This document shows positions 1 through 18,252 of a DNA stretch of 21,010 bases, piece after piece. The position numbers and the translations under genes were made by a program. Under the pieces are notes generated by a model that did no database searches, was not told where the DNA came from, and worked only from the letters and a program-made list of their open reading frames with translations. The DNA is taken from positions 1 to 21,010 of the IMG/VR virus record IMGVR_UViG_3300001472_000031; one strand, given 5' to 3'. Numbering within the stretch: the first letter of the stretch is position 1; each line of letters opens with the position of its first letter. Origin of the DNA: a virus.

Positions 1-1533
1 ACCGTATGTACCGTCTAAGAAAGCGTTAGCGTCTTCTTGCGCTATGCCGGTGGCCCCGTTAGTAGATCCCTCGTCGCTATTATTTGAGGCTGAAGTATTA
101 TTAGTTAACTCTAAAACAACAGACTCAGTTTTTTCATCGAACTCTTTATTTGAAAGATCATAATATTGTTTCTTTTCCTCTTCCGTCATATTTGAAGTTT
201 TCGAATTAATATGTTCTGGTTCGGTCAAAGCGCTACTAAGCTTTACAATGCGACTTCCGTTTTCATCTTCTCTGTAGGCGTAATGTGCATCCTCTGATAG
301 CTTTGTATCAAGCGCAAGATTTCTCGACTGCATTTCACTTATGTCGTAGGTGACTGTTTCTCCTTTGGCATTTTTGTATGTAAAGGAATTAGTCTTTGCG
401 ATATATTTCGCCATCTCCGCCGGTGTTGACCAATTTTCTGGGTCGGCTTTCACCTTTTCCGCAGCGGTTTTGACGTCGGCCGTGTCCGCACTGGCTATGA
501 CGTTTTTCACATTACTGAGTTTAATACCTCTGGCGTAATTGGTCGCCTGAAGTGCGCCGAAAGCTAACGGGTTGGTTAGAAGCAACGAGGCATTCATAAT
601 CGTAGTCATCAGCGTATCATTGTCACCGTCTATGCCGCCCTCAAGCCCTTTAAGGCCAGCTTTACTTATTTCCTCTTGGGATATGTGATTGTCGCCAGCG
701 CCTTTGCCGTCATCACCACCCGTATCTAAATGTAGGAAATTTCCTTGCCCCCAAGAATCTCCACTCGCCCCCATGCCGCCACCATCCCAAGTATCGGTCA
801 AGTCGTCGTAGCCAGTGATGCGGGTAAACGTAGACAAGGCATCAAGCTTTTCTTTTTCATCCTTCTTATCGCTGTCTAAAGCCCTGCTGTCATTTTTCCC
901 TACAGTTTCCCTGTATTCTTTGTGCGTACCAGAGAAATATTCTGACCCAGAGCCGCCCTTACCCCCGCCGTCAATCGCGTCTGTGAAGCTGTCAAATCCA
1001 AAGAAGAATTCGCGCAGCCCTGTCTGTGGGTTGATCGTACCAGAGCCGCCCATTTTCTTGAGCATTTCTACTTCTTGAGGATTTACGTGAACGACTTCAG
1101 TATCGCCGTATCTTCCCATTTCAGAAAGGTCTTGCGCGGTTTCTTTAATATCTGATCTTGCACTCATAAACTCTCTGTTGTCGTAGGTTGGTTTTGGAGG
1201 TGGTAGGAAGTTTCCGTCAGCATCGTAGAAATTACCCTCGCCATCCCTCATCATGTTCGTCATGGAACCAGCAGATTGCAAAGGATACATGTGGTCTATT
1301 TCGATTTGCTCGCGTGACATTGGCCTAGCCCTTGGGCGTAATTTGCTACTTATTTCCCTCGCAAAGCCACCTTGTTTCACTTCTGGATTATTGGGGCCAT
1401 CGTTCCATCGGAGCATACTTAAAAAACCTTGCCACTGTTCTTCCGTGTAGTCAGCTTGATCGAAGGTTGGATTAACCACCTTTCGACCTTTCGGCACTAC
1501 TGGCCCTCTGTAGTATTTATTAAAATCAGACAT
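1..1533 (-). CDS. Large tail-associated or internal virion protein, partial (C-terminus beyond left edge)
   Basis: I read this frame by hand: it is open for all 511 codons from the ATG at 1533 to the first base of the window, so the C-terminus is missing. The start overlaps the stop of the preceding 511 aa fibre-like gene by 8 bases (ATGTCTGA), which supports it. The protein is hydrophilic and rich in Gly, Asp, Lys and Glu. Residues about 149-178 carry a motif of the form NPxExxxLKxxGGSGxINPxTGLxEFFF, which I recall from large minor structural proteins of short-tailed phages, usually close to tail genes. Residues 185-305 are Gly/Asp-rich, with stretches loosely like calcium-binding loops (DxGGDDGKGAGDN, then DGDND). 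A short hydrophobic patch lies near residues 309-331. Its place at the end of the tail block suits an internal or tail-tip protein. The exact role is unknown. Confidence 0.85.
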   Translation of the reverse strand, partial: MSDFNKYYRGPVVPKGRKVVNPTFDQADYTEEQWQGFLSMLRWNDGPNNPEVKQGGFAREISSKLRPRARPMSREQIEIDHMYPLQSAGSMTNMMRDGEGNFYDADGNFLPPPKPTYDNREFMSARSDIKETAQDLSEMGRYGDTEVVHVNPQEVEMLKKMGGSGTINPQTGLREFFFGFDSFTDAIDGGGKGGSGSEYFSGTHKEYRETVGKNDSRALDSDKKDEKEKLDALSTFTRITGYDDLTDTWDGGGMGASGDSWGQGNFLHLDTGGDDGKGAGDNHISQEEISKAGLKGLEGGIDGDNDTLMTTIMNASLLLTNPLAFGALQATNYARGIKLSNVKNVIASADTADVKTAAEKVKADPENWSTPAEMAKYIAKTNSFTYKNAKGETVTYDISEMQSRNLALDTKLSEDAHYAYREDENGSRIVKLSSALTEPEHINSKTSNMTEEEKKQYYDLSNKEFDEKTESVVLELTNNTSASNNSDEGSTNGATGIAQEDANAFLDGTYG

Positions 1534-3061
1534 TCGTAATTACCGCCGCTAGTGCTATTTCGATATCGGTTACGCTCGATGCGGAAGACACGGTGAACTC
1601 TATTTTCTTTGAGAGCGTCGTCGCGTCTACCGTAATAGACGATGACAAGTTTTGTTCTGTGAGAGTTGAGCTTGCCGCTATCGTGTCTCCTGCTGCTATG
1701 CCACCTAGCTTAAGGCGCACGTTGCATGTACCGCTTGTTGTTTTTACAGCGATAGCGTCAATGCGCACGGTCTGCTTGAAGGCTCGCGTGACAGTGTAAT
1801 CACCGTCTGGAATCGACCCATCCTTGGAAAAGTAGAATGAGCGAGTAGCAAATATTGTAGGCAACTGAGCAACGGGAAGTAACCCTTGAGCATCTAGGGC
1901 AGCTACACCCGATGCCGCGCCAATAAAAGTTTGTGGAATAAGTGCGGATACGTCCACTGCTGCGAACTCTAGCCCACCACCCGTAGAGTTTACGCGCAGT
2001 TGTTGTAACGCGTTAGCGGAAGTAAACGCTGGGATGCCTGTGTCTGGGCTTGTCAGAAGCCAACCTGTCCCGTTGTAGAATTTAAGTACATTCGGTGACG
2101 CAGATGTATCAACCCAGAAGTCACCAGCATTTGCGCTTGCAGGCGTTGACGCGCTTACATAAACTCTGCCCCTGTTGGCGAGTGTCGTAGCCAAGTCTGC
2201 AATCTTTGCTTGTGGTATTCCTGCGTCCGCGATTGCTAGTTTGGAGAATGGTATGAAGCCGTTAGCGTCAGTAAACGCGTCTTCGGTCATCAACCCCGAA
2301 ACTTTGACAGAGTTAACGTCTTCAACGCGAAGTAATGAAATTATATCTCCTGCGCTTAACGCAGATGTAAACGTAACTGTCGATGAGGCAGGATTTGTTG
2401 TGTAGTCGTTTGTAGAACCTTCGCGCTGCATGACACCATTCCGGTAAATCATAATGGTCTGACTTGCCGTATGCACATAAGGGAAAACAGCTTGGTTCGC
2501 ATTGGACGTAATGTCCGTTCTGCTAAAGCCAGAAGTGTTCGCGCTCTGAACCTTGAATATGGAAATAACATCTCCTGCGGATGCAGCAGACCCTAACGTT
2601 ATTGTGTCAGCACTTGTGCTTGCAGTAATAGTCGCCGCAGCTTGAAGCGCCCCGTTCTTGTAAACAAGAATAGCATCCGTAGAGATGTGAGAGTAACTAA
2701 ATACAGTTTGCCCAGCCGTAGCGGTGAAGTCTTGCCGACCAGAGAATATTGGCGCACCAATCGTTCCTACGTCAACGCCACTTGCCCCACGTAATTCAGC
2801 AGTTGTAGCAAGGTTTATCCAACCAGAATTCGCGTCAGTATATGTACCCACACGATACTGCAATCCGTTCGTATTATCGTTCCGAAGCTCGACAACTCCT
2901 GTCACCGTACCCTCAGTGTTAAACAGCTTTTTCATAAGCTCGGATAACGTATTGTCACCAAGCTCGGCAGAGTTGACGTATCGAACAATGTTCTCAATGT
3001 CAGCGCCGATGTTACCACTGCTTGTGTGGTTGTTCGGGTAAAGAATTTTCAAACGTGCCAT
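1526..3061 (-). CDS. Tail fibre-like structural protein (511 aa)
   Basis: This is a probable virion fibre or tail appendage. Residues about 5-88 form an N-terminal module that resembles the N-terminus of the 420 aa fibre at 13144-14406 (shared L..LM.K.FN..G, then LQ[YF]RV, then W...A). Two tandem beta-rich repeats follow at about 109-172 and 181-246, each with Q.VF.Y.H, then I.[VY].[KR]NG..Q, then SAGD.IS. Residues about 300-335 hold a GDFWVDTS...LKFYNGTGW element, common in phage fibres. The C-terminal 110 residues form a separate Ser/Thr/Ala-rich beta domain that may bind the receptor. The start is 2 bases after the stop of the gp10-like gene, with AAGGA as ribosome binding site. There is no enzymatic motif. 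Fibre function is inferred from architecture and position. Confidence 0.85.
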   Translation of the reverse strand: MARLKILYPNNHTSSGNIGADIENIVRYVNSAELGDNTLSELMKKLFNTEGTVTGVVELRNDNTNGLQYRVGTYTDANSGWINLATTAELRGASGVDVGTIGAPIFSGRQDFTATAGQTVFSYSHISTDAILVYKNGALQAAATITASTSADTITLGSAASAGDVISIFKVQSANTSGFSRTDITSNANQAVFPYVHTASQTIMIYRNGVMQREGSTNDYTTNPASSTVTFTSALSAGDIISLLRVEDVNSVKVSGLMTEDAFTDANGFIPFSKLAIADAGIPQAKIADLATTLANRGRVYVSASTPASANAGDFWVDTSASPNVLKFYNGTGWLLTSPDTGIPAFTSANALQQLRVNSTGGGLEFAAVDVSALIPQTFIGAASGVAALDAQGLLPVAQLPTIFATRSFYFSKDGSIPDGDYTVTRAFKQTVRIDAIAVKTTSGTCNVRLKLGGIAAGDTIAASSTLTEQNLSSSITVDATTLSKKIEFTVSSASSVTDIEIALAAVITNV

Positions 3062-10005: not shown

Positions 10006-10902
10006 TTAACCCTCTTCCATCTGTACTTCGACTACGAGCTTGCCGTGATTAAAATTTCCACTTGTTGCGTAAAAACGAAAGCCACCTTCCATCGCAGTAG
10101 TCGAATTGTTAGTTGAGTAATTATTCCAACCACCATATTCTTGACTGGGCCAAGTGTTTGAACTGTTCTGGTACATAATTTGATACCAGCAGCCGCCACC
10201 CTTGTCCTTTTGGTTGCTCCCTGCAGACCCTTCGCGCCACGGTATAAAATTAATCTGCCCAGTTACCCCAGAACCGTAAGTGTAGTCGGTCTGCTTAATA
10301 TCATTCCCGTATGCCGGAAATCTCATCCAGCCTTGGTTGCTGTTGTGTTGTTCGCCATGACTGCCAGAGGTGCTTTCTTTGTAGTAATAGCTACATCCAA
10401 GGTATCCTGAACTTATAACGCTCCCACCGGAATTAAGCCCATAAAGATATATGTAGGTATCACCGCTACTGGCAATTTCGTACATTGTGAGGCGAACACC
10501 AGCGATTTTTGCGTAGGTGATGCCTGAGTTAATACTCGCCCACGTTAAGTCATACGTGTTGGTTGCAGATAACGTGTTAAAGTCGTAGGTCTTTTTGTAG
10601 GCTACGCTTGACGGCGGTGCGGCATATTCAAGAGCCGTTGCACCAGAGTTGACCGCAAGCGTTTGACCAGCCGTGCCTATTGCGGCTGGTAAAGCCGCAG
10701 GATTAAATTGTAGCTGCCCAGAGCCATCTGTCGTTATAGGCTTGTTTGCCGTCCCATCGGCTGCTGGCAGTTTAAGTGGCGAGTACGCCAATGTGCCAGT
10801 TCCGTTAGTTACGAGTGGGGCGTTTGCGCCGCCATCGGTCGAGGGCAAGGTAAATGTAGTACCCCCGTTTTTGGCGATCTGATCGACTATGATCTTACTC
10901 AT
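10006..10902 (-). CDS. Repeat-bearing tail fibre/receptor-binding-like protein (298 aa)
   Basis: This is a probable virion appendage protein. After a 18-residue opening (MSKIIVDQIAKNGG...) there are three back-to-back 26-residue repeats at residues 19-44, 45-70 and 71-96, each with LP..(D/I)G.A, a T/V.(D/N/S)G.G.L core and a Tyr/Phe near the end. Such repeats usually form the shaft of trimeric fibres. The rest is beta-rich and full of Tyr, Gly, Ser and Asn (YYYKESTSGSHGEQHNSNQG), like receptor-binding tips. Near the end GGFRFYATSGNFNHG resembles GFYFRPNSGTFEQG in the 217 aa protein next door, suggesting a related tip domain. Ribosome binding site AAGGA is 7 bases from the ATG. Confidence 0.8.
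   Translation of the reverse strand: MSKIIVDQIAKNGGTTFTLPSTDGGANAPLVTNGTGTLAYSPLKLPAADGTANKPITTDGSGQLQFNPAALPAAIGTAGQTLAVNSGATALEYAAPPSSVAYKKTYDFNTLSATNTYDLTWASINSGITYAKIAGVRLTMYEIASSGDTYIYLYGLNSGGSVISSGYLGCSYYYKESTSGSHGEQHNSNQGWMRFPAYGNDIKQTDYTYGSGVTGQINFIPWREGSAGSNQKDKGGGCWYQIMYQNSSNTWPSQEYGGWNNYSTNNSTTAMEGGFRFYATSGNFNHGKLVVEVQMEEG
10615..10848 (-). repeat. Three tandem 26-residue (78-base) repeats in the 298 aa fibre-like gene
   Basis: These bases code for residues 19-96. The three units are exactly 26 residues each, begin with LP and share the G.A / T.G.G / L.[YF] pattern. The DNA has diverged much more than the protein pattern, so the repeat is old and maintained for structure. Confidence 0.7.
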
Positions 10903-10929
10903 CTGTTTATCCTTTCAGTTGAGTGGGGG

Positions 10930-11583
10930 TTATGCCGCTGCCGCGCGGCGTTTTGTTCCGTAGATAGAAAAAAGGCTGTCCATGCCTTCTCCCTGCTCAA
11001 AAGTCCCGCTATTGGGACGAAAATAAAAACCATCTTGAGCCGCATTAGGGGTTGCAACAAAATGACTGTATCCCGTTTGGCTAGGCATCCCATAATTAGC
11101 CAACCCCTTGTAGAAATTACCTTGAAACGTTTTAGAAGAAGTGCTGTCTTGATCAGGATGTGGGAAGTAAATGTTCCACTCGATTGTGCCGTAGCTACTG
11201 CTGTCGTCTAGGTCAGTCATCATGTTGTTGCCATCTGATGTACGCATTTCACTGGTCCTGTTACTGGTAAACTCTTGGCTTCCGTATACGCCCTGCGTTG
11301 TCCAAGACTGTGCGGTCGTTCGTGTGTCGCCCACCATTCCGCCAAACCACATATAATCATTGTTGGCTGATAGCTTCACACGCGCGCCAAGAATTTTGAA
11401 ATGCCCGTAAGTTTTGGTGTCCAGATTTTTAAACTCAATGGCGCTTTTACCCGCACCGGAAACAACTGATATTGTCTCAATGTGTCTCTGAAGGCTAAAA
11501 GCCGCCTCTACATCTTCTAAAGAAAGACTTGCGGTTGATACCGCGCCGCCACTTAATGAGTTCAATCTTACTACGCGAGCCAT
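10930..11583 (-). CDS. Fibre- or receptor-binding-like structural protein (217 aa)
   Basis: No known enzyme motif is visible. The N-terminus (residues 1-45) is a short Ser/Leu-rich lead. Residues 50-90 (KNLDTKTYGHFKILGARVKL, then WFGGMVG) and the end (GFYFRPNSGTFEQGEGMDSL) follow a beta-sandwich-like pattern I associate with small marine phage tip proteins. The C-terminal motif is echoed in the 298 aa protein. Ribosome binding site GGAGG, 6 bases from the ATG, lies inside the last codons of the 515 aa gene. Position among fibre genes supports a host-attachment role; this is inferred. Confidence 0.72.
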   Translation of the reverse strand: MARVVRLNSLSGGAVSTASLSLEDVEAAFSLQRHIETISVVSGAGKSAIEFKNLDTKTYGHFKILGARVKLSANNDYMWFGGMVGDTRTTAQSWTTQGVYGSQEFTSNRTSEMRTSDGNNMMTDLDDSSSYGTIEWNIYFPHPDQDSTSSKTFQGNFYKGLANYGMPSQTGYSHFVATPNAAQDGFYFRPNSGTFEQGEGMDSLFSIYGTKRRAAAA

Positions 11584-11584
11584 T

Positions 11585-13132
11585 CTAAACCTCCACGAAC
11601 GTGACAGTTGTGTGGACAGTTGCAGCGGCGTCTTGGTTTTCAGCGTAAAGACAATCCCCCGATCCTAAGACCAGACCGTTTCTCTCGTAAACACCAATCG
11701 CAGAACCGTTCTCCAAAAGACCAGTCTGAGGAATGCTTGAAAAACCAGTTGTTTTTGCGAACAACGTGTCCTGTTGAGTGGACTGCAAAAACAATATTCT
11801 TTCACTACTGCCAGAGTTATCTACCGCCAGAAGCGTTGCGGATGGATACCCCATCTCAGAAGCAGTCTTCCAGTTGATAAGGTCTGTGGAATACAGAACG
11901 TCCCCTTGAACGGCGCTCTTGTAAGCAACCCAAAGCGATGCACCAATTCTCTCCGGTTGCGACGTCTTAACCGTTAAGGGGTGTGTAGCCGGCTCCTTGG
12001 TGCATACGGTATCAAAGTCCTTAACCGTGTAACCAGATACAAACATGTCTGGGTGGTCAAAAGACCATACGCCATTATTACTAGAGCTTGATTGAACGTT
12101 TAAATAATATTTGTCGGTTGTCGGATTGTACTTAATCCAGCTCAATGAGTGACCGCCAGCCGATGACAGATTAAACTCAAGACGAGCATGCCAAACTTCA
12201 CCTGTTGAAATTAAACTATTTTCGTTTTGAGATGTCGTAGTGTCTTTCGCATTTTTAATTGATGATGCACCGGCGGTGTAATTGCCGTTATTTCTCCATT
12301 GTCGCGCAGATATAAGACCGACCCTGTAACTATTATTTGAAGTTTTGCTGGTGCCAGTAGCAAGAACATAAACACCTCCGTCAGATTGGAGGTCTAAGGT
12401 TAAACCGTCGTTAACTTTGAAACTGTCTGGATTTGAGCTGCTACCCAAAGCGTATTGTAAACTGCCGCTTGATTGCGTGGCTTCATCAAAAGAAGGCGTG
12501 GTAATGCTACCATGAAACTGCCCGGCACCCATATATGCGCTTGTGCTAATACCGATTACAGTATCAGTCCAAATATCAGTAACAAAAAAACTATTGTAAT
12601 AATTGAAATTGTGGGAGCTTACGTAAGTTGAACCGCTAGTTGGACTAGAACCTTGAAGCCAATTAGGGAAATAAGACTTGTCAGCAGCTATATCACTGTA
12701 AAAATGGGGTTGGCTAGTTGCAATCAAGGCGCCATACGCGCTTGCTTTGTTGTAAGATTGAGGATTGGTTAAAAAATAAGGGTCGTACTGGGTGTATTTA
12801 TAATAATCGGCAGAATAGCTCGTTCCATTTACCCCAAGTCGGTGCTTGCTGGTGCCAACAACATTTTGCAGTCTGGTGACGCCGTTATCCCCAGAAGATT
12901 TTAAATCAAAGTCGCCAGTGTTTTCTGTGACAGTCTCCACCAAAGTTTTTGCGGCAGAAATGAAATTAAGAGGTCTAGTATTTGAGCTATCAATTAACAA
13001 AGATAGTTTCGGATTAACGGTATTGTCACTACTTATCGCATTAATCGAAACAACGACGGGGCCACTCGTTGTGTTTTCAAAAATATTTTGCGCTGTTTCC
13101 GGTGTGATGCTCGAACTTGTTCTACCAGCCAT
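11585..13132 (-). CDS. Unrecognised large structural protein, possibly receptor-binding (515 aa)
   Basis: I do not recognise a family. The protein is rich in Ser, Thr, Asn, Gly and Tyr, has almost no charged helices and appears all-beta. Residues 21-52 form a beta-sandwich-like lead (TTSGPVVVSI, then SLLIDSSN). Residues 412-425 (VLYSTDLINWKTAS) resemble the D..NW-type blade of sialidase-like or Asp-box propellers, and the region after it alternates strand-like segments (ATLLAVDNSG, then RILFLQSTQQD). No catalytic set can be named. AGGAG lies 8 bases before the ATG. It sits between two fibre-like genes, so a virion attachment role is the simplest reading. Confidence 0.7.
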   Translation of the reverse strand: MAGRTSSSITPETAQNIFENTTSGPVVVSINAISSDNTVNPKLSLLIDSSNTRPLNFISAAKTLVETVTENTGDFDLKSSGDNGVTRLQNVVGTSKHRLGVNGTSYSADYYKYTQYDPYFLTNPQSYNKASAYGALIATSQPHFYSDIAADKSYFPNWLQGSSPTSGSTYVSSHNFNYYNSFFVTDIWTDTVIGISTSAYMGAGQFHGSITTPSFDEATQSSGSLQYALGSSSNPDSFKVNDGLTLDLQSDGGVYVLATGTSKTSNNSYRVGLISARQWRNNGNYTAGASSIKNAKDTTTSQNENSLISTGEVWHARLEFNLSSAGGHSLSWIKYNPTTDKYYLNVQSSSSNNGVWSFDHPDMFVSGYTVKDFDTVCTKEPATHPLTVKTSQPERIGASLWVAYKSAVQGDVLYSTDLINWKTASEMGYPSATLLAVDNSGSSERILFLQSTQQDTLFAKTTGFSSIPQTGLLENGSAIGVYERNGLVLGSGDCLYAENQDAAATVHTTVTFVEV

Positions 13133-13143
13133 CTCGTATTCTC

Positions 13144-14406
13144 CTATATGTCGCCAAAGTAGGTCACGCGACCTGTTGACTGATATCTATTGCCGCCGCC
13201 TGCTGGCGCGTCTGCGAAGCCGTGAAGCGTCATGCCACTTGGAACCGTTACGGTTGCAGCGTCACCAACGTAAATAAATTGATACGCAGCATGGTTGCTT
13301 AGTACGGTATCGCTCTCAAAATAGTTGTAGTGGCTGTCGATGGTGTCGCTCTCGCCAACGTAGAGCGTGGCGTCCGTAGACATGCCTTGATATGTGCCGC
13401 TTATCGCCGTGTTGTTCGGTATTATCTCAATCGTTTTCCAAATATAATTTACGGCACTAGCATCTGGCACAACGTAAGCCGAAGCCGTACCGCCCGTAGC
13501 ACCGCCACTGCCCAAAGCACCGGCGTAGCCGATAAAGCCCATGCCCGAATGGGCTTGGCAGTATGCGTACAACATAGGTGCGTCTTGCTCTAACTTGACC
13601 TCTGTGTATGCGCCAGCTTGCCCAGCCGTTCCGACGACCGTTATGCCTGTGGTGTACGATGTCCCTGCTGGGGTGGCGTGTGTGCCATCGATCGTTTCGG
13701 AAAATCTGATTTGATGCCCAGCGTTTGATGCGTCTGATTGATCAAACCGGTAGAAGATACTCGGTAGTATGTTCGCTTTGCTTTCGACTGATCCGTCGAT
13801 AGCGTACTTGTTCCCGCTTGATGTGCTTTGGACTGTGACCGCGATAGAGAAGTCTTCGCGTAGGACTGCTCCACTTGTGTCAAAGACTGCGTTTACCCAT
13901 GCTGTGCCGTTGTAGAGCTTGAGTGCGCCAGAGCTTGTGTTGAAATAGACCGCACCAGTTTGGACGCCACTTGTACTTGGATCAGAGCTGTGTGGGCCTG
14001 CGAATACTGCCTGAATTTCACTAACGCGTGTGGAGGCTGTAGCGACATGGCCCAGAGCCGTTGTTGCGTGAGTAGACGCTGTGTTAGCGTGCCCTAGTGC
14101 CGTTGTCGCGTGGCCCAATGCCGTCGCAACTTGAGTGTTCATGCCAGCAACTAGCGTCGAGATGCCAGCTATGTCCTGCCAAGGACCACCCGTCACACGG
14201 AACTGTAAGCTTTCCTGCCCAGCCGTAGATACGAATTGAAATTCGAACGCCTCAATGTTTCCACTGGCGTTGAATATTTTAGCCATCAACTGATCTAGGC
14301 GTAAGCCACCGCGCTCTGCGTCTTCTAAGTACGTGTCAAGTAAATGCTCGCCAGTGGCGGCACTTCTAAAAGTAAGCTGCTCGGATGGAACTCTAGTCTG
14401 AGCCAT
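13144..14406 (-). CDS. Tail fibre protein with cupredoxin-like domain (420 aa)
   Basis: Residues about 10-80 form an N-terminal module resembling that of the 511 aa fibre near the left edge, probably the part that docks to the virion. Residues 94-128 are five 7-residue repeats (TALGHAT, TALGHAN, TASTHAT type), suggesting a trimeric shaft. Residues about 150-172 hold GAVYFNTSSGALKLYNGTAW, a common fibre element. Residues about 187-290 look like a cupredoxin fold: FDQSDASNAGHQIRFS, TSYTTGITVVGTAGQAGAY, then APMLYAYCQAHSGMG. His231, Cys283, His286 and Met289 give the full type-1 copper pattern. The C-terminal 120 residues are beta-rich. The ribosome binding site is weak (GGGGAT). Confidence 0.82.
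   Translation of the reverse strand: MAQTRVPSEQLTFRSAATGEHLLDTYLEDAERGGLRLDQLMAKIFNASGNIEAFEFQFVSTAGQESLQFRVTGGPWQDIAGISTLVAGMNTQVATALGHATTALGHANTASTHATTALGHVATASTRVSEIQAVFAGPHSSDPSTSGVQTGAVYFNTSSGALKLYNGTAWVNAVFDTSGAVLREDFSIAVTVQSTSSGNKYAIDGSVESKANILPSIFYRFDQSDASNAGHQIRFSETIDGTHATPAGTSYTTGITVVGTAGQAGAYTEVKLEQDAPMLYAYCQAHSGMGFIGYAGALGSGGATGGTASAYVVPDASAVNYIWKTIEIIPNNTAISGTYQGMSTDATLYVGESDTIDSHYNYFESDTVLSNHAAYQFIYVGDAATVTVPSGMTLHGFADAPAGGGNRYQSTGRVTYFGDI
14023..14127 (-). repeat. Five degenerate 21-base repeats coding Ala/Thr/His heptads
   Basis: Bases code for residues 94-128 of the 420 aa fibre: heptads of the form TALGHAT/TASTHAT with period exactly 7 residues. DNA units differ at synonymous and some other positions. 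Such heptads may set the length of a trimeric shaft and can change copy number by slippage. Confidence 0.75.
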
Positions 14407-14408
14407 TA

Positions 14409-14666
14409 TTATTCATCCCCAAGTTTCTCAGCAATCTGTTCTACACGACTGCGAGAGAGCTTTATTATTGACTGTATCTTGACTACGTGAGCATTGATTG
14501 TGTCGCGGCCCTGTTGATCCGCATCTCTTAGCTCTGATATTGCAATCTTTACCGCTAGTAAGTCGTCCCTGATTGGAGATAATTCCTCTTTGATCTTTGC
14601 GTCGATGTAATCTCTGACCTTCGGATCAATCGCAGAGGCTAATGCCTTGCTGTCAGCTAACGTCAT
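14409..14666 (-). CDS. Short coiled-coil protein (85 aa)
   Basis: The function is unknown. The sequence is almost entirely helical and charged, with heptad-like spacing from about residue 20 to the end (IDAKIKEELSPIRDDLLAVK, then ISELRDADQQGRDTI, then IIKLSRSRVEQIAEKL). The start shares ATGA with the portal stop, so it is coupled to portal translation; the fibre gene starts 2 bases after its stop. A small coiled coil between portal and fibre could be a minor virion or assembly factor. The gene contains one long copy of the GGGACGAC element. Confidence 0.72.
   Translation of the reverse strand: MTLADSKALASAIDPKVRDYIDAKIKEELSPIRDDLLAVKIAISELRDADQQGRDTINAHVVKIQSIIKLSRSRVEQIAEKLGDE
14547..14570 (-). 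promoter_or_regulatory. GGGACGAC element, long copy 2, inside the 85 aa gene
   Basis: On the minus strand these 24 bases match the intergenic copy at 16593-16616 at 20 positions, starting AGGGACGACTTACTAGCGG. It is about 140 bases upstream of the 420 aa fibre start. It is also coding (RDDLLAVK), so protein constraint could explain its presence. The core ACGACTTACTA recalls the ACGACTCACTA of the T7 promoter; this is an analogy only. Confidence 0.4.
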
Positions 14667-16576
14667 TTTTCGCCTTTCATCGGAACAAGGTTCCCTTTTT
14701 GGACTTCATTCTGGATGTTCTCTTGAGGCTGAACAGATGCGCCGCGCATCTTCTCCATCATTTGCATCTGCTGTGCTGGCGTTGGGCCTTGCGCAGCCTG
14801 CTCCTTGGAAATCTTGAATTGCTCTAAGTCGGATATGCCCATAGCGCGGATAGCCTCTTCGACTATCTTTCCGCTATTGTACTCCATGCTTAGTCCCGTT
14901 TGGTTCAGCATGCCCAGCATATTCATCCACGTTTCGGCATTCTTCGTAGGTTCGAGAGGAAGCGTACCGTCGATTACGAGGTAGTCGATCTCGCCCTGCA
15001 AGTCGGAGAGATTGAAGTCGAGGTAGTTGTCCTTGACCATATCAGTGAGTGAGCCTGTCGCATCACCGTCATTCATGCGTATTGATCCTTCGGTGGCGAA
15101 GAAATCTTGTATGTTCGAAGTCATCATTCGTACCATCGGGCGTACCGACGTTGACGATATGATGCGACTGAGTACGCCGAGGCGTTGACTGCCCAGTTGG
15201 GTTAGCCGCTGGATTTCTGTAGCTGTACGTACACCGCCTTCGGCTGTCGGCATTCCTTGCTGGGCATCTGATGCGGCCGATAAGCGCTGTTTTAATCCGC
15301 CCATAGCCTCTATGTCGCGCCAATGACCTGCGGTTACGTCAGGTATTTGCGAAATATACACGCCCTCATTGGGCTTAGAGCCAGGCAAAGTGCGTACAAG
15401 ACCGTGCGGGTTGCGGTCAATTAAGTCTCCAATGGCAACCTGCGTCGGGTCTACGAATATAAGGTTCGATAATGCAGCCTGCACGTTGTCGATCCGACTG
15501 CGTAGCAACCATGTGGCTATGTCGTGAAGCGGAAGAAGCAAATCGTAAAGAGACTGGCCGAAGGTCTTGTGGCTGTCGTGGTACAGACCACCAATTACTA
15601 CAGGAAATTGCTTGCCGTAAGGATTTAACTGGCATCTGATTACAACACTCTCGTCTAGGATCGTAACAACCATCCATAGCTGGTCGATCTGAGGAAGATT
15701 AACTTCGTATCCCGCAAGCCGTACCCAGCACTCGTCAACTACTCGGCTGTCACCAAGCGTAAATAAGGAACCACCGCTTTCCCTGCGGTTTCTGTCGGCT
15801 GGGTCGATAGATAATCCACGGCCAGCCTCTTTGTGCCAAGTGTGCCCGTCCCACCCGTTATTCGGCGCAGAAATTCTATTGCGCAACGCTGGGAACTCTC
15901 GCAACTTGGGGTACAGCCCAGATTGGAGGAGCGCGTCGTACGAGGAATAGTCTGCAAATATGATATACTGCATCCGTTCCCAGTCGCCCCACTGTACGCG
16001 GGGATCGTGGAAAACCCTTCGGGGATCGACGTTGGTGATGACGTTTGTTCTGTTCTTTTGTGACCATGTAACCTTCGTAGGGGCGTACCCGTAGCGGATA
16101 CAGTCAAGAAGATGTTGCGCAATTCGGGCCTCCCCTGCGGTTCGCCGCATTTGTTGATGAAGAAGGCGCTCAAGAATTGCTCCCGACTTGCGAGACTTCC
16201 TGTTCAAACCTTCTAACTGAAACATCGGATTGCGGCCCGTAAGCGCAGCCATAAGGTAGGTGAGTACGGTGTCGCTGATAGCGCGCGTGTCAGCTATTAC
16301 GGCTTTCTCGCGGAACTTTGTGGCATCTGGCTTAACGTACACATCGTGAGCGCGGTCAGCTTGCTTCCAATGACTGTAGCGTTGCGATACCCTGTCGTAT
16401 GACATCTGCATCGCTGACTTCGCGTAGCTCACAAGACGTTGCTCTTGCTCGTCCGTTAAGTCGATTGAGATGTCGTCGTATGACATCAACTTTTCGGCAT
16501 GATCAGACAGATCGACAACGATACCGTCATCGACTGGTGTGAATTCTGCGCGATAATTTACATTATTAATAGCCAT
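14663..16576 (-). CDS. Portal protein (637 aa)
   Basis: This is the probable dodecameric portal at the unique capsid vertex, through which the terminase pumps DNA and onto which the adaptor docks. Recognition rests on the pattern of podovirus-type portals: a helical charged N-terminal third with SHWKQADRAHDVYVKPD at about 67-83 and AVIADTRAISDTVLTYLMAA at about 91-110, then LLDCIRYGYAPTKVTWSQK, DPRRVFHDPRVQWGDWE, and PVVIGGLYHDSHKTFGQSLY before LLPLHDIATWLLRSRIDNV. The C-terminal 60 residues are Met/Gln-rich and probably form the barrel or a disordered tail. It lies 38 bases after the large terminase stop, the usual order. The gap contains the best GGGACGAC copy. Confidence 0.87.
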   Translation of the reverse strand: MAINNVNYRAEFTPVDDGIVVDLSDHAEKLMSYDDISIDLTDEQEQRLVSYAKSAMQMSYDRVSQRYSHWKQADRAHDVYVKPDATKFREKAVIADTRAISDTVLTYLMAALTGRNPMFQLEGLNRKSRKSGAILERLLHQQMRRTAGEARIAQHLLDCIRYGYAPTKVTWSQKNRTNVITNVDPRRVFHDPRVQWGDWERMQYIIFADYSSYDALLQSGLYPKLREFPALRNRISAPNNGWDGHTWHKEAGRGLSIDPADRNRRESGGSLFTLGDSRVVDECWVRLAGYEVNLPQIDQLWMVVTILDESVVIRCQLNPYGKQFPVVIGGLYHDSHKTFGQSLYDLLLPLHDIATWLLRSRIDNVQAALSNLIFVDPTQVAIGDLIDRNPHGLVRTLPGSKPNEGVYISQIPDVTAGHWRDIEAMGGLKQRLSAASDAQQGMPTAEGGVRTATEIQRLTQLGSQRLGVLSRIISSTSVRPMVRMMTSNIQDFFATEGSIRMNDGDATGSLTDMVKDNYLDFNLSDLQGEIDYLVIDGTLPLEPTKNAETWMNMLGMLNQTGLSMEYNSGKIVEEAIRAMGISDLEQFKISKEQAAQGPTPAQQMQMMEKMRGASVQPQENIQNEVQKGNLVPMKGEK

Positions 16577-16592
16577 AGTTATTTGTTACCCC

Positions 16593-16616
16593 CTTTGCGG
16601 TTAGCAAGTCGTCCCT
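16593..16616 (-). promoter_or_regulatory. GGGACGAC element, long copy 1, between terminase and portal
   Basis: On the minus strand it begins AGGGACGACTTGCTAACCGC, within the 38-base gap before portal. It overlaps the last two bases of the terminase stop codon. Copies occur at 14547-14570 (20 of 24 bases the same), 5443-5452 and 7626-7634. It is mostly noncoding here, which makes a regulatory role more plausible than for copy 2. Confidence 0.45.
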
Positions 16617-18252
16617 ACTCACCCCAGTTTCTCCATTCTGTTTTTGATGCGCCCGTCAGCCAAGCGTTAGCGTCCATTTGGGTAATGGGTGATGGCGTGA
16701 AGTAGTCGCCAGAGCTAGGCGTTCTGGCTAAGACATCCAGCCCAATAGAAAGAGCGTCTACTTGGTCGTCGTAGGTGCCCGATGGGAAGGTTTGGCACTC
16801 GTCGTAGAATGTATCGATCCAAGGCGCGTTCTCTGGCAGGAATACGCGACCACCCTCTATAAGTGGGAGGACTGCGTTGAGCCGTGATACTTTATCGCCC
16901 GATACTTTGTAGGGAATTACGGATACACCGCTTTCGCGCTTGAGTTCTTGGATAAGGGACTGACCGCTGGCCTTGTCTTCTATGTAAAGGCCGCGCAATC
17001 CTTTGCCGCGCCACTTATTGTTCAGCATTATAATGCGCCTCTTGAGTTCTGGGAACTCAAAGCGATCTCGGATGACGTCAACTAAGTAAATATCGCCCGT
17101 TGTGTCCATTCCGAGTACGCACATCACCGAATAATCGGACGTAGTTTTGGCTTTAAAGGCCGTATCCGCAGATATTACGAGGGTTGAGAAGGTTTCTGGC
17201 TTTAAATCGGACGGAAATGTACGCCACCAATGCGCTTTTATAATGTTCCCGCCCACAATATAGGGCGTTTGCTGGTATAATGAGGCAAATTCTCGTGGGT
17301 TTAGGCGCTCTCTGCGCTCTAAATCCTCCAAAGAGAAGCGTTCAGGCCACAATGCTTGCTTCTTTGTGCTATGAATATAGCGTTTTGAGGGGTTAACTTT
17401 CTGTAAATCCGTGCCTGACATGTAGTCTGGGTCGTCTTTTGGTAGGGATGCACGGCTCCTTTTGTCTGCCGTGCGCTTAGTTTCTATGGCAGGGAAGTTA
17501 ATATGATGCCACCGACCCTCATTCCAGTCGTCACTTTGCATAAGTCTGCCAGCCAAATCGTCTGGGTGCCAACGAGTTAGGATAACGATCTGAGCTGGCG
17601 GCACTCCATCTATGTCAGGCTGTAGTCGGGTGGATAGTGCGGAGACGTAATAGTTCCAAACCTTGTTGCGCTGGGTGGCGGATTCCGCGTCCTCGCGCGA
17701 CTTGAACGGGTCATCGAATAAGAGCAGATTTGCGGCCCGTCCAGAGGTGGTGCCGCCAATACCTATGAAGTATGCGGCTCCGCCGCTTGTCGTGCGCCAC
17801 TGGTCAACTGCGCGGCTGTCAGCAGACATCTCAAAGTCTGCGTAGGCTTGATCGGTTAAGGGGTCGTTTACGAGTTCTCGGACTTGGCGCCCGAAGTCTG
17901 TGGCGAGTTGAGAATTGTAGGATGTGGACATCAAAAAGCGACTAGGCTTCCGTGCCATGAAGTAGGACGGGAACAGGACTGAGCCGTAGGTGGACTTGCC
18001 GTGTCGCGGCGGCATGGTGATGAGAAGATTTCGGACAGGCATCTTCTTTGTCTTGCGCTTTTCAGTGTCCGACATGTTGAACTGGTTTGTAAGCGTGTTC
18101 CTCTCTAAAGCGTCTAAGGCTCTTATCATCGTCTTATGGAACGGAGGTATGAACCAGTTAGGATTGTGTAGCTTAACAAAGCCATCGAAGCTCTCTTCTG
18201 CCTTACGCAAGGCTAAGAGATGACGAGCAGCAGCTTGCGGGGTGAGGCTCAT
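16615..18252 (-). CDS. terL: Terminase large subunit (545 aa)
   Basis: This is the ATP-driven DNA packaging motor and genome-cutting nuclease. The N-terminal ATPase shows Walker A at about 79-88 (MPPRHGKST), Walker B at about 176-182 (LLLFDDP) and a coupling-type segment at about 223-236 (VILTRWHPDDLAGR). The C-terminal RNase H-like nuclease shows three acidic sites: ISADTAF near Asp362, YIEDKASG near Asp426, and YDDQVDAL near Asp495/Asp496. The order and length are normal. The start shares ATGA with the stop of the 75 aa gene. The only odd point is the insert around residues 256-300 rich in Lys, Ser and Asp, which I take as family variation. Confidence 0.95.
   Translation of the reverse strand: MSLTPQAAARHLLALRKAEESFDGFVKLHNPNWFIPPFHKTMIRALDALERNTLTNQFNMSDTEKRKTKKMPVRNLLITMPPRHGKSTYGSVLFPSYFMARKPSRFLMSTSYNSQLATDFGRQVRELVNDPLTDQAYADFEMSADSRAVDQWRTTSGGAAYFIGIGGTTSGRAANLLLFDDPFKSREDAESATQRNKVWNYYVSALSTRLQPDIDGVPPAQIVILTRWHPDDLAGRLMQSDDWNEGRWHHINFPAIETKRTADKRSRASLPKDDPDYMSGTDLQKVNPSKRYIHSTKKQALWPERFSLEDLERRERLNPREFASLYQQTPYIVGGNIIKAHWWRTFPSDLKPETFSTLVISADTAFKAKTTSDYSVMCVLGMDTTGDIYLVDVIRDRFEFPELKRRIIMLNNKWRGKGLRGLYIEDKASGQSLIQELKRESGVSVIPYKVSGDKVSRLNAVLPLIEGGRVFLPENAPWIDTFYDECQTFPSGTYDDQVDALSIGLDVLARTPSSGDYFTPSPITQMDANAWLTGASKTEWRNWGE

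What the first reader, a model, noticed from the sequence alone, without database searches (positions are those of the whole stretch)
13537..13848. Cupredoxin-like domain with complete copper-ligand pattern inside a tail fibre
Residues about 187-290 of the 420 aa fibre end in YCQAHSGMG and have an upstream NAGHQIRFS. Together His231, Cys283, His286 and Met289 reproduce the His / Cys-x2-His-x2-Met spacing known from type-1 copper proteins such as amicyanin. I recall similar YYC..HSGMGG domains in other marine phage structural proteins, so it may be a recurrent module. A copper site on a virion could serve receptor or metal capture, or the ligands may only stabilise the fold.
Basis: partly seen in the sequence, partly recalled or inferred. 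Interest (0 to 1): 0.75.

Follow-up and report, generated by a model that had tools for sequence, protein, structure and literature searches.

The report
Copper-protein domain in phage tail fibre
A marine phage tail fibre carries a small domain related to plastocyanin-type copper proteins, with all four copper-binding residues in place, and the same unrecognised module recurs in hundreds of marine phage surface proteins; whether it really holds copper, and what for, is untested.

Summary
His231, Cys283, His286 and Met289 lie at the stated places in a 420-aa minus-strand fibre gene (13144-14406), and Cys283 is its only cysteine. The domain is residues 183-297. AlphaFold2 models it well (pLDDT 88.5). 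All 50 listed VIA neighbours are copper proteins of the cupredoxin fold (best Z 9.0). Profile-profile comparison links it to plastocyanin/pseudoazurin, directly (91%) and through an intermediate phage type whose members partly pass Pfam's Copper-bind cut-off. It is a recurrent module: 208 phage records, essentially all marine, and over 500 viral contigs. Of 86 diverged copies, 77 keep His/Cys/His/(Met or Gln). The nine exceptions lose two or more ligands together but keep the core fold residues. This favours a working metal site over mere fold stabilisation. Metal identity, ligand distances and function could not be tested. The phage resembles roseophage CRP-810, whose fibre has the same N-terminal anchor but lacks this domain, so the module is swappable. 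Best reading: a metal-locked cupredoxin displayed on the fibre as an adhesion or structural module. Novelty: a known fold in an apparently unreported setting.

The parts
13144..14406 (-). 420-aa tail-fibre gene (P0001)
   Evidence: ORF; N-terminal 79 aa 50.6% identical to the CRP-810 tail fibre; order TerL-portal-small ORF-fibre as in CRP-810; PHROGs tail-fibre families match residues 110-297
14170..14406 (-). N-terminal anchor, residues 1-79, shared with the CRP-810 fibre
   Evidence: tblastn 50.6% identity, E 2e-12
14005..14163 (-). predicted helical (coiled-coil-like) stretch, residues 82-134
   Evidence: AF2 full-length model, helices 82-115 and 124-134; low overall confidence (pLDDT 57)
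13516..13860 (-). cupredoxin domain, residues 183-297
   Evidence: AF2 pLDDT 88.5, pTM 0.81; VIA best Z 9.0, all 50 rows cupredoxin-fold copper proteins; hhalign to plastocyanin/pseudoazurin
13714..13716 (-). His231, putative first copper ligand, just before a strand
   Evidence: position; aligned with the plastocyanin ligand His; invariant in A2
13558..13560 (-). Cys283, putative thiolate ligand, end of a strand
   Evidence: only Cys of the protein; aligned with the cupredoxin Cys
13549..13551 (-). His286, putative ligand in the Cys-x2-His-x2-Met loop
13540..13542 (-). Met289, putative axial ligand; Gln in two sublineages
   Evidence: aligned with the type C Met; Met/Gln distribution
13147..13515 (-). 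C-terminal part of the fibre, residues 298-420, no known fold assigned
   Evidence: pLDDT below 50; conserved in L002-L005

Best explanation
Residues 183-297 are a genuine cupredoxin domain carried as a swappable module in the body of a marine phage tail fibre, after an anchor and a helical stretch. SHOWN: predicted fold, homology to plastocyanin/pseudoazurin, ligand register, recurrence, and largely joint retention or loss of the ligands. INFERRED: the four residues bind one metal, most likely copper, in a type-1-like site with an amicyanin-length Cys-x2-His-x2-Met loop, and the metal clamps the ligand loops so that the end face of the sandwich is a rigid surface on the virion for adhesion or fibre stability. 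The lone Cys is then used as a ligand, not in a disulfide. Rough step probabilities: fold and homology 0.95, metal site 0.75, copper rather than another metal 0.65, rigid adhesion or structural role 0.4.
For: AF2 model pLDDT 88.5. VIA: three-domain Cu nitrite reductase N-domain Z 9.0 (rmsd 2.5, 97 aligned), rusticyanin 8.1, N. maritimus purple cupredoxin 7.8 (93 aligned of a 95-residue chain); all 50 rows are cupredoxin-fold copper proteins. hhalign: A1 vs plastocyanin-type set 91%, wider family 96.4%, column-shuffled and reversed controls under 1%; A1 vs phage type C 96.5% with all four ligands in register, type C vs plastocyanins 96.9%. Two viral members reach Pfam Copper-bind's cut-off (32.2 and 21.3 bits vs 21.2). 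77 of 86 diverged copies are HCHM or HCHQ; losses are joint (Fisher p 1.7e-10 for H1/H2, not corrected for relatedness) while core residues G, T, Y, F stay 100% in the losing copies. Parsimony gives 6 changes for His2 on the tree. 31 of 36 proteins with a ligand-losing copy also hold an intact copy; among single-copy proteins 319 are intact and 5 have a loss. CRP-810 has the same anchor and no such domain.
Against: Pfam and NCBIfam recognise nothing in the window protein itself above cut-off. No Foldseek PDB hit is below E 0.001. The direct A1 link weakens to 56% when one intermediate, L351, is left out, and to 6.9% when the Cys/His/Met tail is cut off. Tree-corrected sign tests have too few pairs to be significant. 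One small sublineage (L343-L345) loses only the Cys. The 31-of-36 count is dominated by one family of giant proteins. No ligand distances, no metal data, no functional data.
Confidence: 0.6

Rival explanations
1. The site is a metal-free relic: the fold is a cupredoxin, but His/Cys/His/Met only form a packing and hydrogen-bond network.
For: Virion proteins need no redox centre; ligand-less copies keep the fold residues, so an empty site is tolerated.
Against: Ligands are lost mostly together while the core stays, so they are not needed for the fold; Met is replaced by Gln in two sublineages, a known alternative axial ligand in cupredoxins (Gln ligand from general knowledge of stellacyanin); the lone Cys has no disulfide partner in its chain.
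Confidence: 0.17
2. The site binds another metal in the virion (Zn, Fe or other), used structurally, comparable to the iron-binding HxH motifs of phage tail fibres.
For: Apo-cupredoxins can take up zinc (general knowledge); iron is bound by HxH motifs in T4 gp37 and proposed in marine phage fibres (PMC11705849).
Against: The ligand set (2 His, Cys, Met) and fold are those of copper proteins; the site is no HxH array.
Confidence: 0.13
3. The site acts by chemistry: electron transfer or copper delivery, for example docking to host copper uptake or to a redox partner at the cell surface (a copper version of the Trojan-horse idea).
For: All intact ligands; cupredoxins usually are electron carriers (general knowledge); the module also occurs in bacterial secreted and surface proteins.
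Against: No partner gene or receptor known; the module sits mid-fibre and is absent from the related CRP-810 fibre.
Confidence: 0.12
4. Chance or convergent His/Cys/His/Met motif on an unrelated beta sandwich.
For: Pfam finds nothing in P0001 above cut-off; Foldseek PDB E-values above 0.001.
Against: Profile links with shuffled controls under 1%, intermediate members over the Pfam cut-off, all 50 VIA rows cupredoxin-fold proteins, conservation in hundreds of relatives.
Confidence: 0.03

Closest known systems
Plastocyanin/azurin family (Pfam PF00127), plastocyanin and pseudoazurin side
   Same: Fold, order and register of His...Cys-x2-His; related phage modules pass the Pfam cut-off
   Different: Different spacing between the first His and the Cys; Gln or Pro where many cupredoxins have Asn after the first His; ligand loop shorter than plastocyanin's; lies inside a virion fibre, not a soluble electron carrier
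Amicyanin
   Same: Cys-x2-His-x2-Met loop length (amicyanin spacing from general knowledge)
   Different: No specific sequence relation found; amicyanin appears only as a weak PDB match of the intermediate L351 (E 0.17 or more)
N-terminal cupredoxin domain of Hyphomicrobium nitrite reductase (2dv6)
   Same: Best structural match, Z 9.0, 97 residues, rmsd 2.5
   Different: 9% identity; part of an enzyme
Module in S-TIM5, pelagiphage and T4-like cyanophage structural proteins (PHROGs 30742, 27200, 693)
   Same: Same domain family; 32-54% identity to listed phage records; intact ligands in the copies read from S-TIM5, Baldr and 023Pt_psg01
   Different: Annotated only as tail fibre, baseplate, virion protein or unknown; not named as cupredoxin
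HxH iron motifs of phage tail fibres
   Same: Proposed metal sites on virions (PMC11705849)
   Different: Unrelated ligand set and architecture

Membership tests
Cupredoxin superfamily | Beta-sandwich fold like known cupredoxins | tested here: met
   AF2 pLDDT 88.5; all 50 VIA rows cupredoxin-fold copper proteins, best Z 9.0. Strand order itself was not inspected in coordinates
Cupredoxin superfamily | Detectable sequence homology to known members | tested here: met
   hhalign 91% (A1), 96.4% (family), 96.5% and 96.9% via type C; controls under 1%
Type-1 copper protein | His, then Cys-x(n)-His-x(n)-Met/Gln in the last inter-strand loop, in register | tested here: met
   H231 before strand 233-236; C283 ends strand 279-283; H286 and M289 in the loop before strand 291-295
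Type-1 copper protein | Ligands converge within coordination distance | not testable with these tools
   Model coordinates are not returned
Type-1 copper protein | Binds copper with Cys-to-Cu charge-transfer colour and small EPR hyperfine splitting | not testable with these tools
   Needs purified protein
Pfam PF00127 Copper-bind | Score over Pfam's curated cut-off | tested here: not met
   No PF00127 hit for P0001 or its domain; 6 of 43 close relatives match weakly; distant viral relatives L252 and L265 pass. So filed under the superfamily, not this Pfam family
Phage tail fibre | Fibre anchor and genomic place | tested here: met
   Residues 1-79 50.6% to the CRP-810 tail fibre; TerL-portal-small ORF-fibre order
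Phage tail fibre | Present in the virion | not testable with these tools
   Only annotation of relatives as virion structural proteins, e.g. S-TIM5

The most novel reading that the evidence does not exclude
Copper-loaded cupredoxin modules are a general part of marine phage tails and baseplates and take a direct part in host attachment or entry, through copper-dependent docking or redox switching, so that copper supply tunes infection.
Probability: 0.1. Interest if true: 0.88.

Novelty: new variant of a known kind. Interest (0 to 1): 0.62.

Why it matters
A module seen in over 200 marine phage genomes and hundreds of viral contigs, so far labelled only tail fibre, baseplate or unknown, appears to be a plastocyanin-like domain with an intact metal site. 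If it binds copper, marine virions carry stoichiometric copper, which bears on trace-metal cycling, virion stability and host recognition. It is directly testable with one small expressed domain.

Tried and rejected
Pfam, NCBIfam and PDB sequence searches with the window domain found nothing significant. Comparison with azurin-type sequences gave 3.5% only, so that branch gave no support. A full-length fold was mostly low confidence outside the module. Plasmids hold no relative. Literature searches for cupredoxin, blue copper or plastocyanin in phage fibres showed no report of this domain in the titles and abstract starts returned from the open-access library; subscription papers and preprints were not covered. 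The S-TIM5 paper was not held. Tree-based tests of joint ligand loss were underpowered. Considered and rejected: a disulfide role for Cys283 within the chain (only Cys in the protein) and phage plastocyanin as a photosynthesis gene (a different gene type; this is a domain of a fibre).

Full report
OBSERVATION. The window codes for a 420-aa protein on the minus strand at 13144-14406. The domain is somewhat longer than stated, residues 183-297.

CONTEXT. The window is the first 21,010 bases of a 44,637-base virus record. Residues 1-79 of the protein are 50.6% identical to the N-terminus of the annotated tail fibre of Roseobacter phage CRP-810. The order large terminase (16615-18252), portal (14663-16576), 85-aa ORF (14409-14666), fibre is the same as in CRP-810. 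The portal and capsid assignments rest on PHROGs; the terminase assignment is by reading and position. The rest of the record holds ORFs that by eye look like an integrase, a LuxR-type regulator, a primase-polymerase and a CobS/CobT-like pair; such genes are reported for CRP-810-type phages (PMC11288001). A CRP-810-like marine phage is therefore likely; the host was not tested. The CRP-810 fibre has the same anchor but no copy of the domain, and L005 has the domain with a different upstream part, so the module is exchangeable. No second copy was found in the record.

FOLD. AlphaFold2 with a 43-row alignment gave pLDDT 88.5 and pTM 0.81. Foldseek against the PDB gave no hit below E 0.001, but many of its top rows are laccases, rusticyanin and nitrite reductase. 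VIA-align shows cupredoxin-fold proteins in all 50 listed rows: 2dv6 Z 9.0 (97 residues, rmsd 2.5), rusticyanin 2cal 8.1, purple cupredoxin 5fc9 7.8 with 93 residues of a 95-residue chain. Single Z values near 8 would be weak alone; the uniformity of the list is the stronger point. H231 lies just before strand 233-236, C283 ends strand 279-283, and H286 and M289 lie in the loop before strand 291-295, the places that ligands occupy in cupredoxins (general knowledge).

HOMOLOGY. Plastocyanin- and pseudoazurin-type proteins were collected from genomes by Pfam PF00127. hhalign of the close family A1 against 22 of them gave 91.4%, and the wider family 96.4%. Twenty column-shuffled controls and one reversed control gave under 1%. 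His231 aligns with the plastocyanin ligand His, Cys with Cys, His286 with His. Without L351, a secreted Prochlorococcus protein over the Pfam cut-off (33 bits), the values fall to 56% and 92.9%; without the Cys/His/Met tail A1 falls to 6.9%, so the tail carries much of the signal. A phage type C, found in the same iterative family, bridges the gap: A1 to C 96.5% with all four ligands in register, C to plastocyanins 96.9%. Two viral members reach Pfam's own cut-off for Copper-bind: L252 with 32.2 bits and L265 with 21.3 against 21.2.

RECURRENCE. tblastn finds the domain in 208 of 50,697 phage records, cyanophages, pelagiphages, Methylophilales phages and a few marine or uncultured viruses; type C in 134, nearly all cyanophages. 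Viral contigs gave 481 and at least 563 relatives for two queries. BFVD has 56 structural hits below E 0.001, many named tail fibre, baseplate or virion proteins. Cellular copies are rare: 8 loci in genome contigs, some of which may be viral (L087 is also held as a viral contig), and 2 of 200 genomes of one bacterial phylum, a SAR86 surface protein with two copies and a pair of secreted proteins in another bacterium.

LIGAND CONSTRAINT. In 86 copies below 70% identity with the motif region present, 77 have His/Cys/His and Met or Gln; the five Gln cases fall into two places of the tree. Nine have lost ligands, and each lost at least two. Losses at the four positions go together (Fisher p from 2e-4 to 2e-10, not corrected for relatedness), while core residues (G29, T31, Y32, F34 in alignment columns) stay 100% in those nine. 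Parsimony on a tree built without the ligand columns gives 6 changes for His2, 6 for Cys, 4 each for His1 and Met/Gln; the tree-aware sign test had too few pairs. Proteins with a ligand-losing copy also have an intact copy in 31 of 36 cases, dominated by one giant phage protein family, while 319 single-copy proteins are intact and 5 have a loss. L343-L345 lost only the Cys. The pattern says that the fold does not need the ligands and that the ligands mostly matter as a set, as expected of a metal site.

MECHANISM. Shown: predicted fold, homology, register, recurrence, joint constraint. Inferred: one metal ion, most likely copper, bound by these four residues; the metal fixes the ligand loops; the domain then offers a rigid end surface on the fibre. 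Copper delivery, electron transfer or copper-dependent docking are possible but have no direct support. A different metal or an empty site is not excluded.

NOVELTY. The fold is well known. Searches of the open-access library showed no paper linking cupredoxins to phage fibres, though subscription papers and preprints were not covered. The nearest idea is iron bound by HxH motifs in tail fibres (PMC11705849). The finding is a new variant of a known kind: a cupredoxin used as a recurrent virion module.

Noticed in passing
L222, L224, L242 and relatives (viral contigs): Giant phage proteins, one type with a subtilase-like stretch, carry 3 to 5 copies of the cupredoxin module; one early copy has lost its ligands (YCYY or HNNY) while others are intact.
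   Followed up: partly
L083 1124-8299: A SAR86 single-cell genome has a very large RTX/cadherin surface protein with two copies of the module, one ligand-less (NSAM) and one intact.
   Followed up: partly
L413 and L415: A bacterial genome carries two neighbouring genes for short, apparently secreted proteins that each consist of little more than one intact module; Pfam does not recognise either.
   Followed up: partly
L351: Prochlorococcus apparently secreted protein of the plastocyanin family that resembles the phage type C module, a possible cellular source.
   Followed up: partly
window 1526-3061 minus: A second fibre-like protein shares a short N-terminal similarity with the fibre studied here (38% over 47 aa), perhaps a common virion anchor.
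   Followed up: no
L343-L345: One sublineage of the module has Cys replaced by Ser with the other three ligands kept.
   Followed up: no
BFVD hits A0A481Z7Q7, A0A481Z6J5, A0A481YVH3: Small beta-sandwich proteins of pithovirus- and marseillevirus-like giant viruses match the model structurally; their ligands were not checked.
   Followed up: no
window 10006-13132 minus: Three further proteins downstream of the fibre have no PHROGs match and may be further fibre or appendage parts.
   Followed up: no
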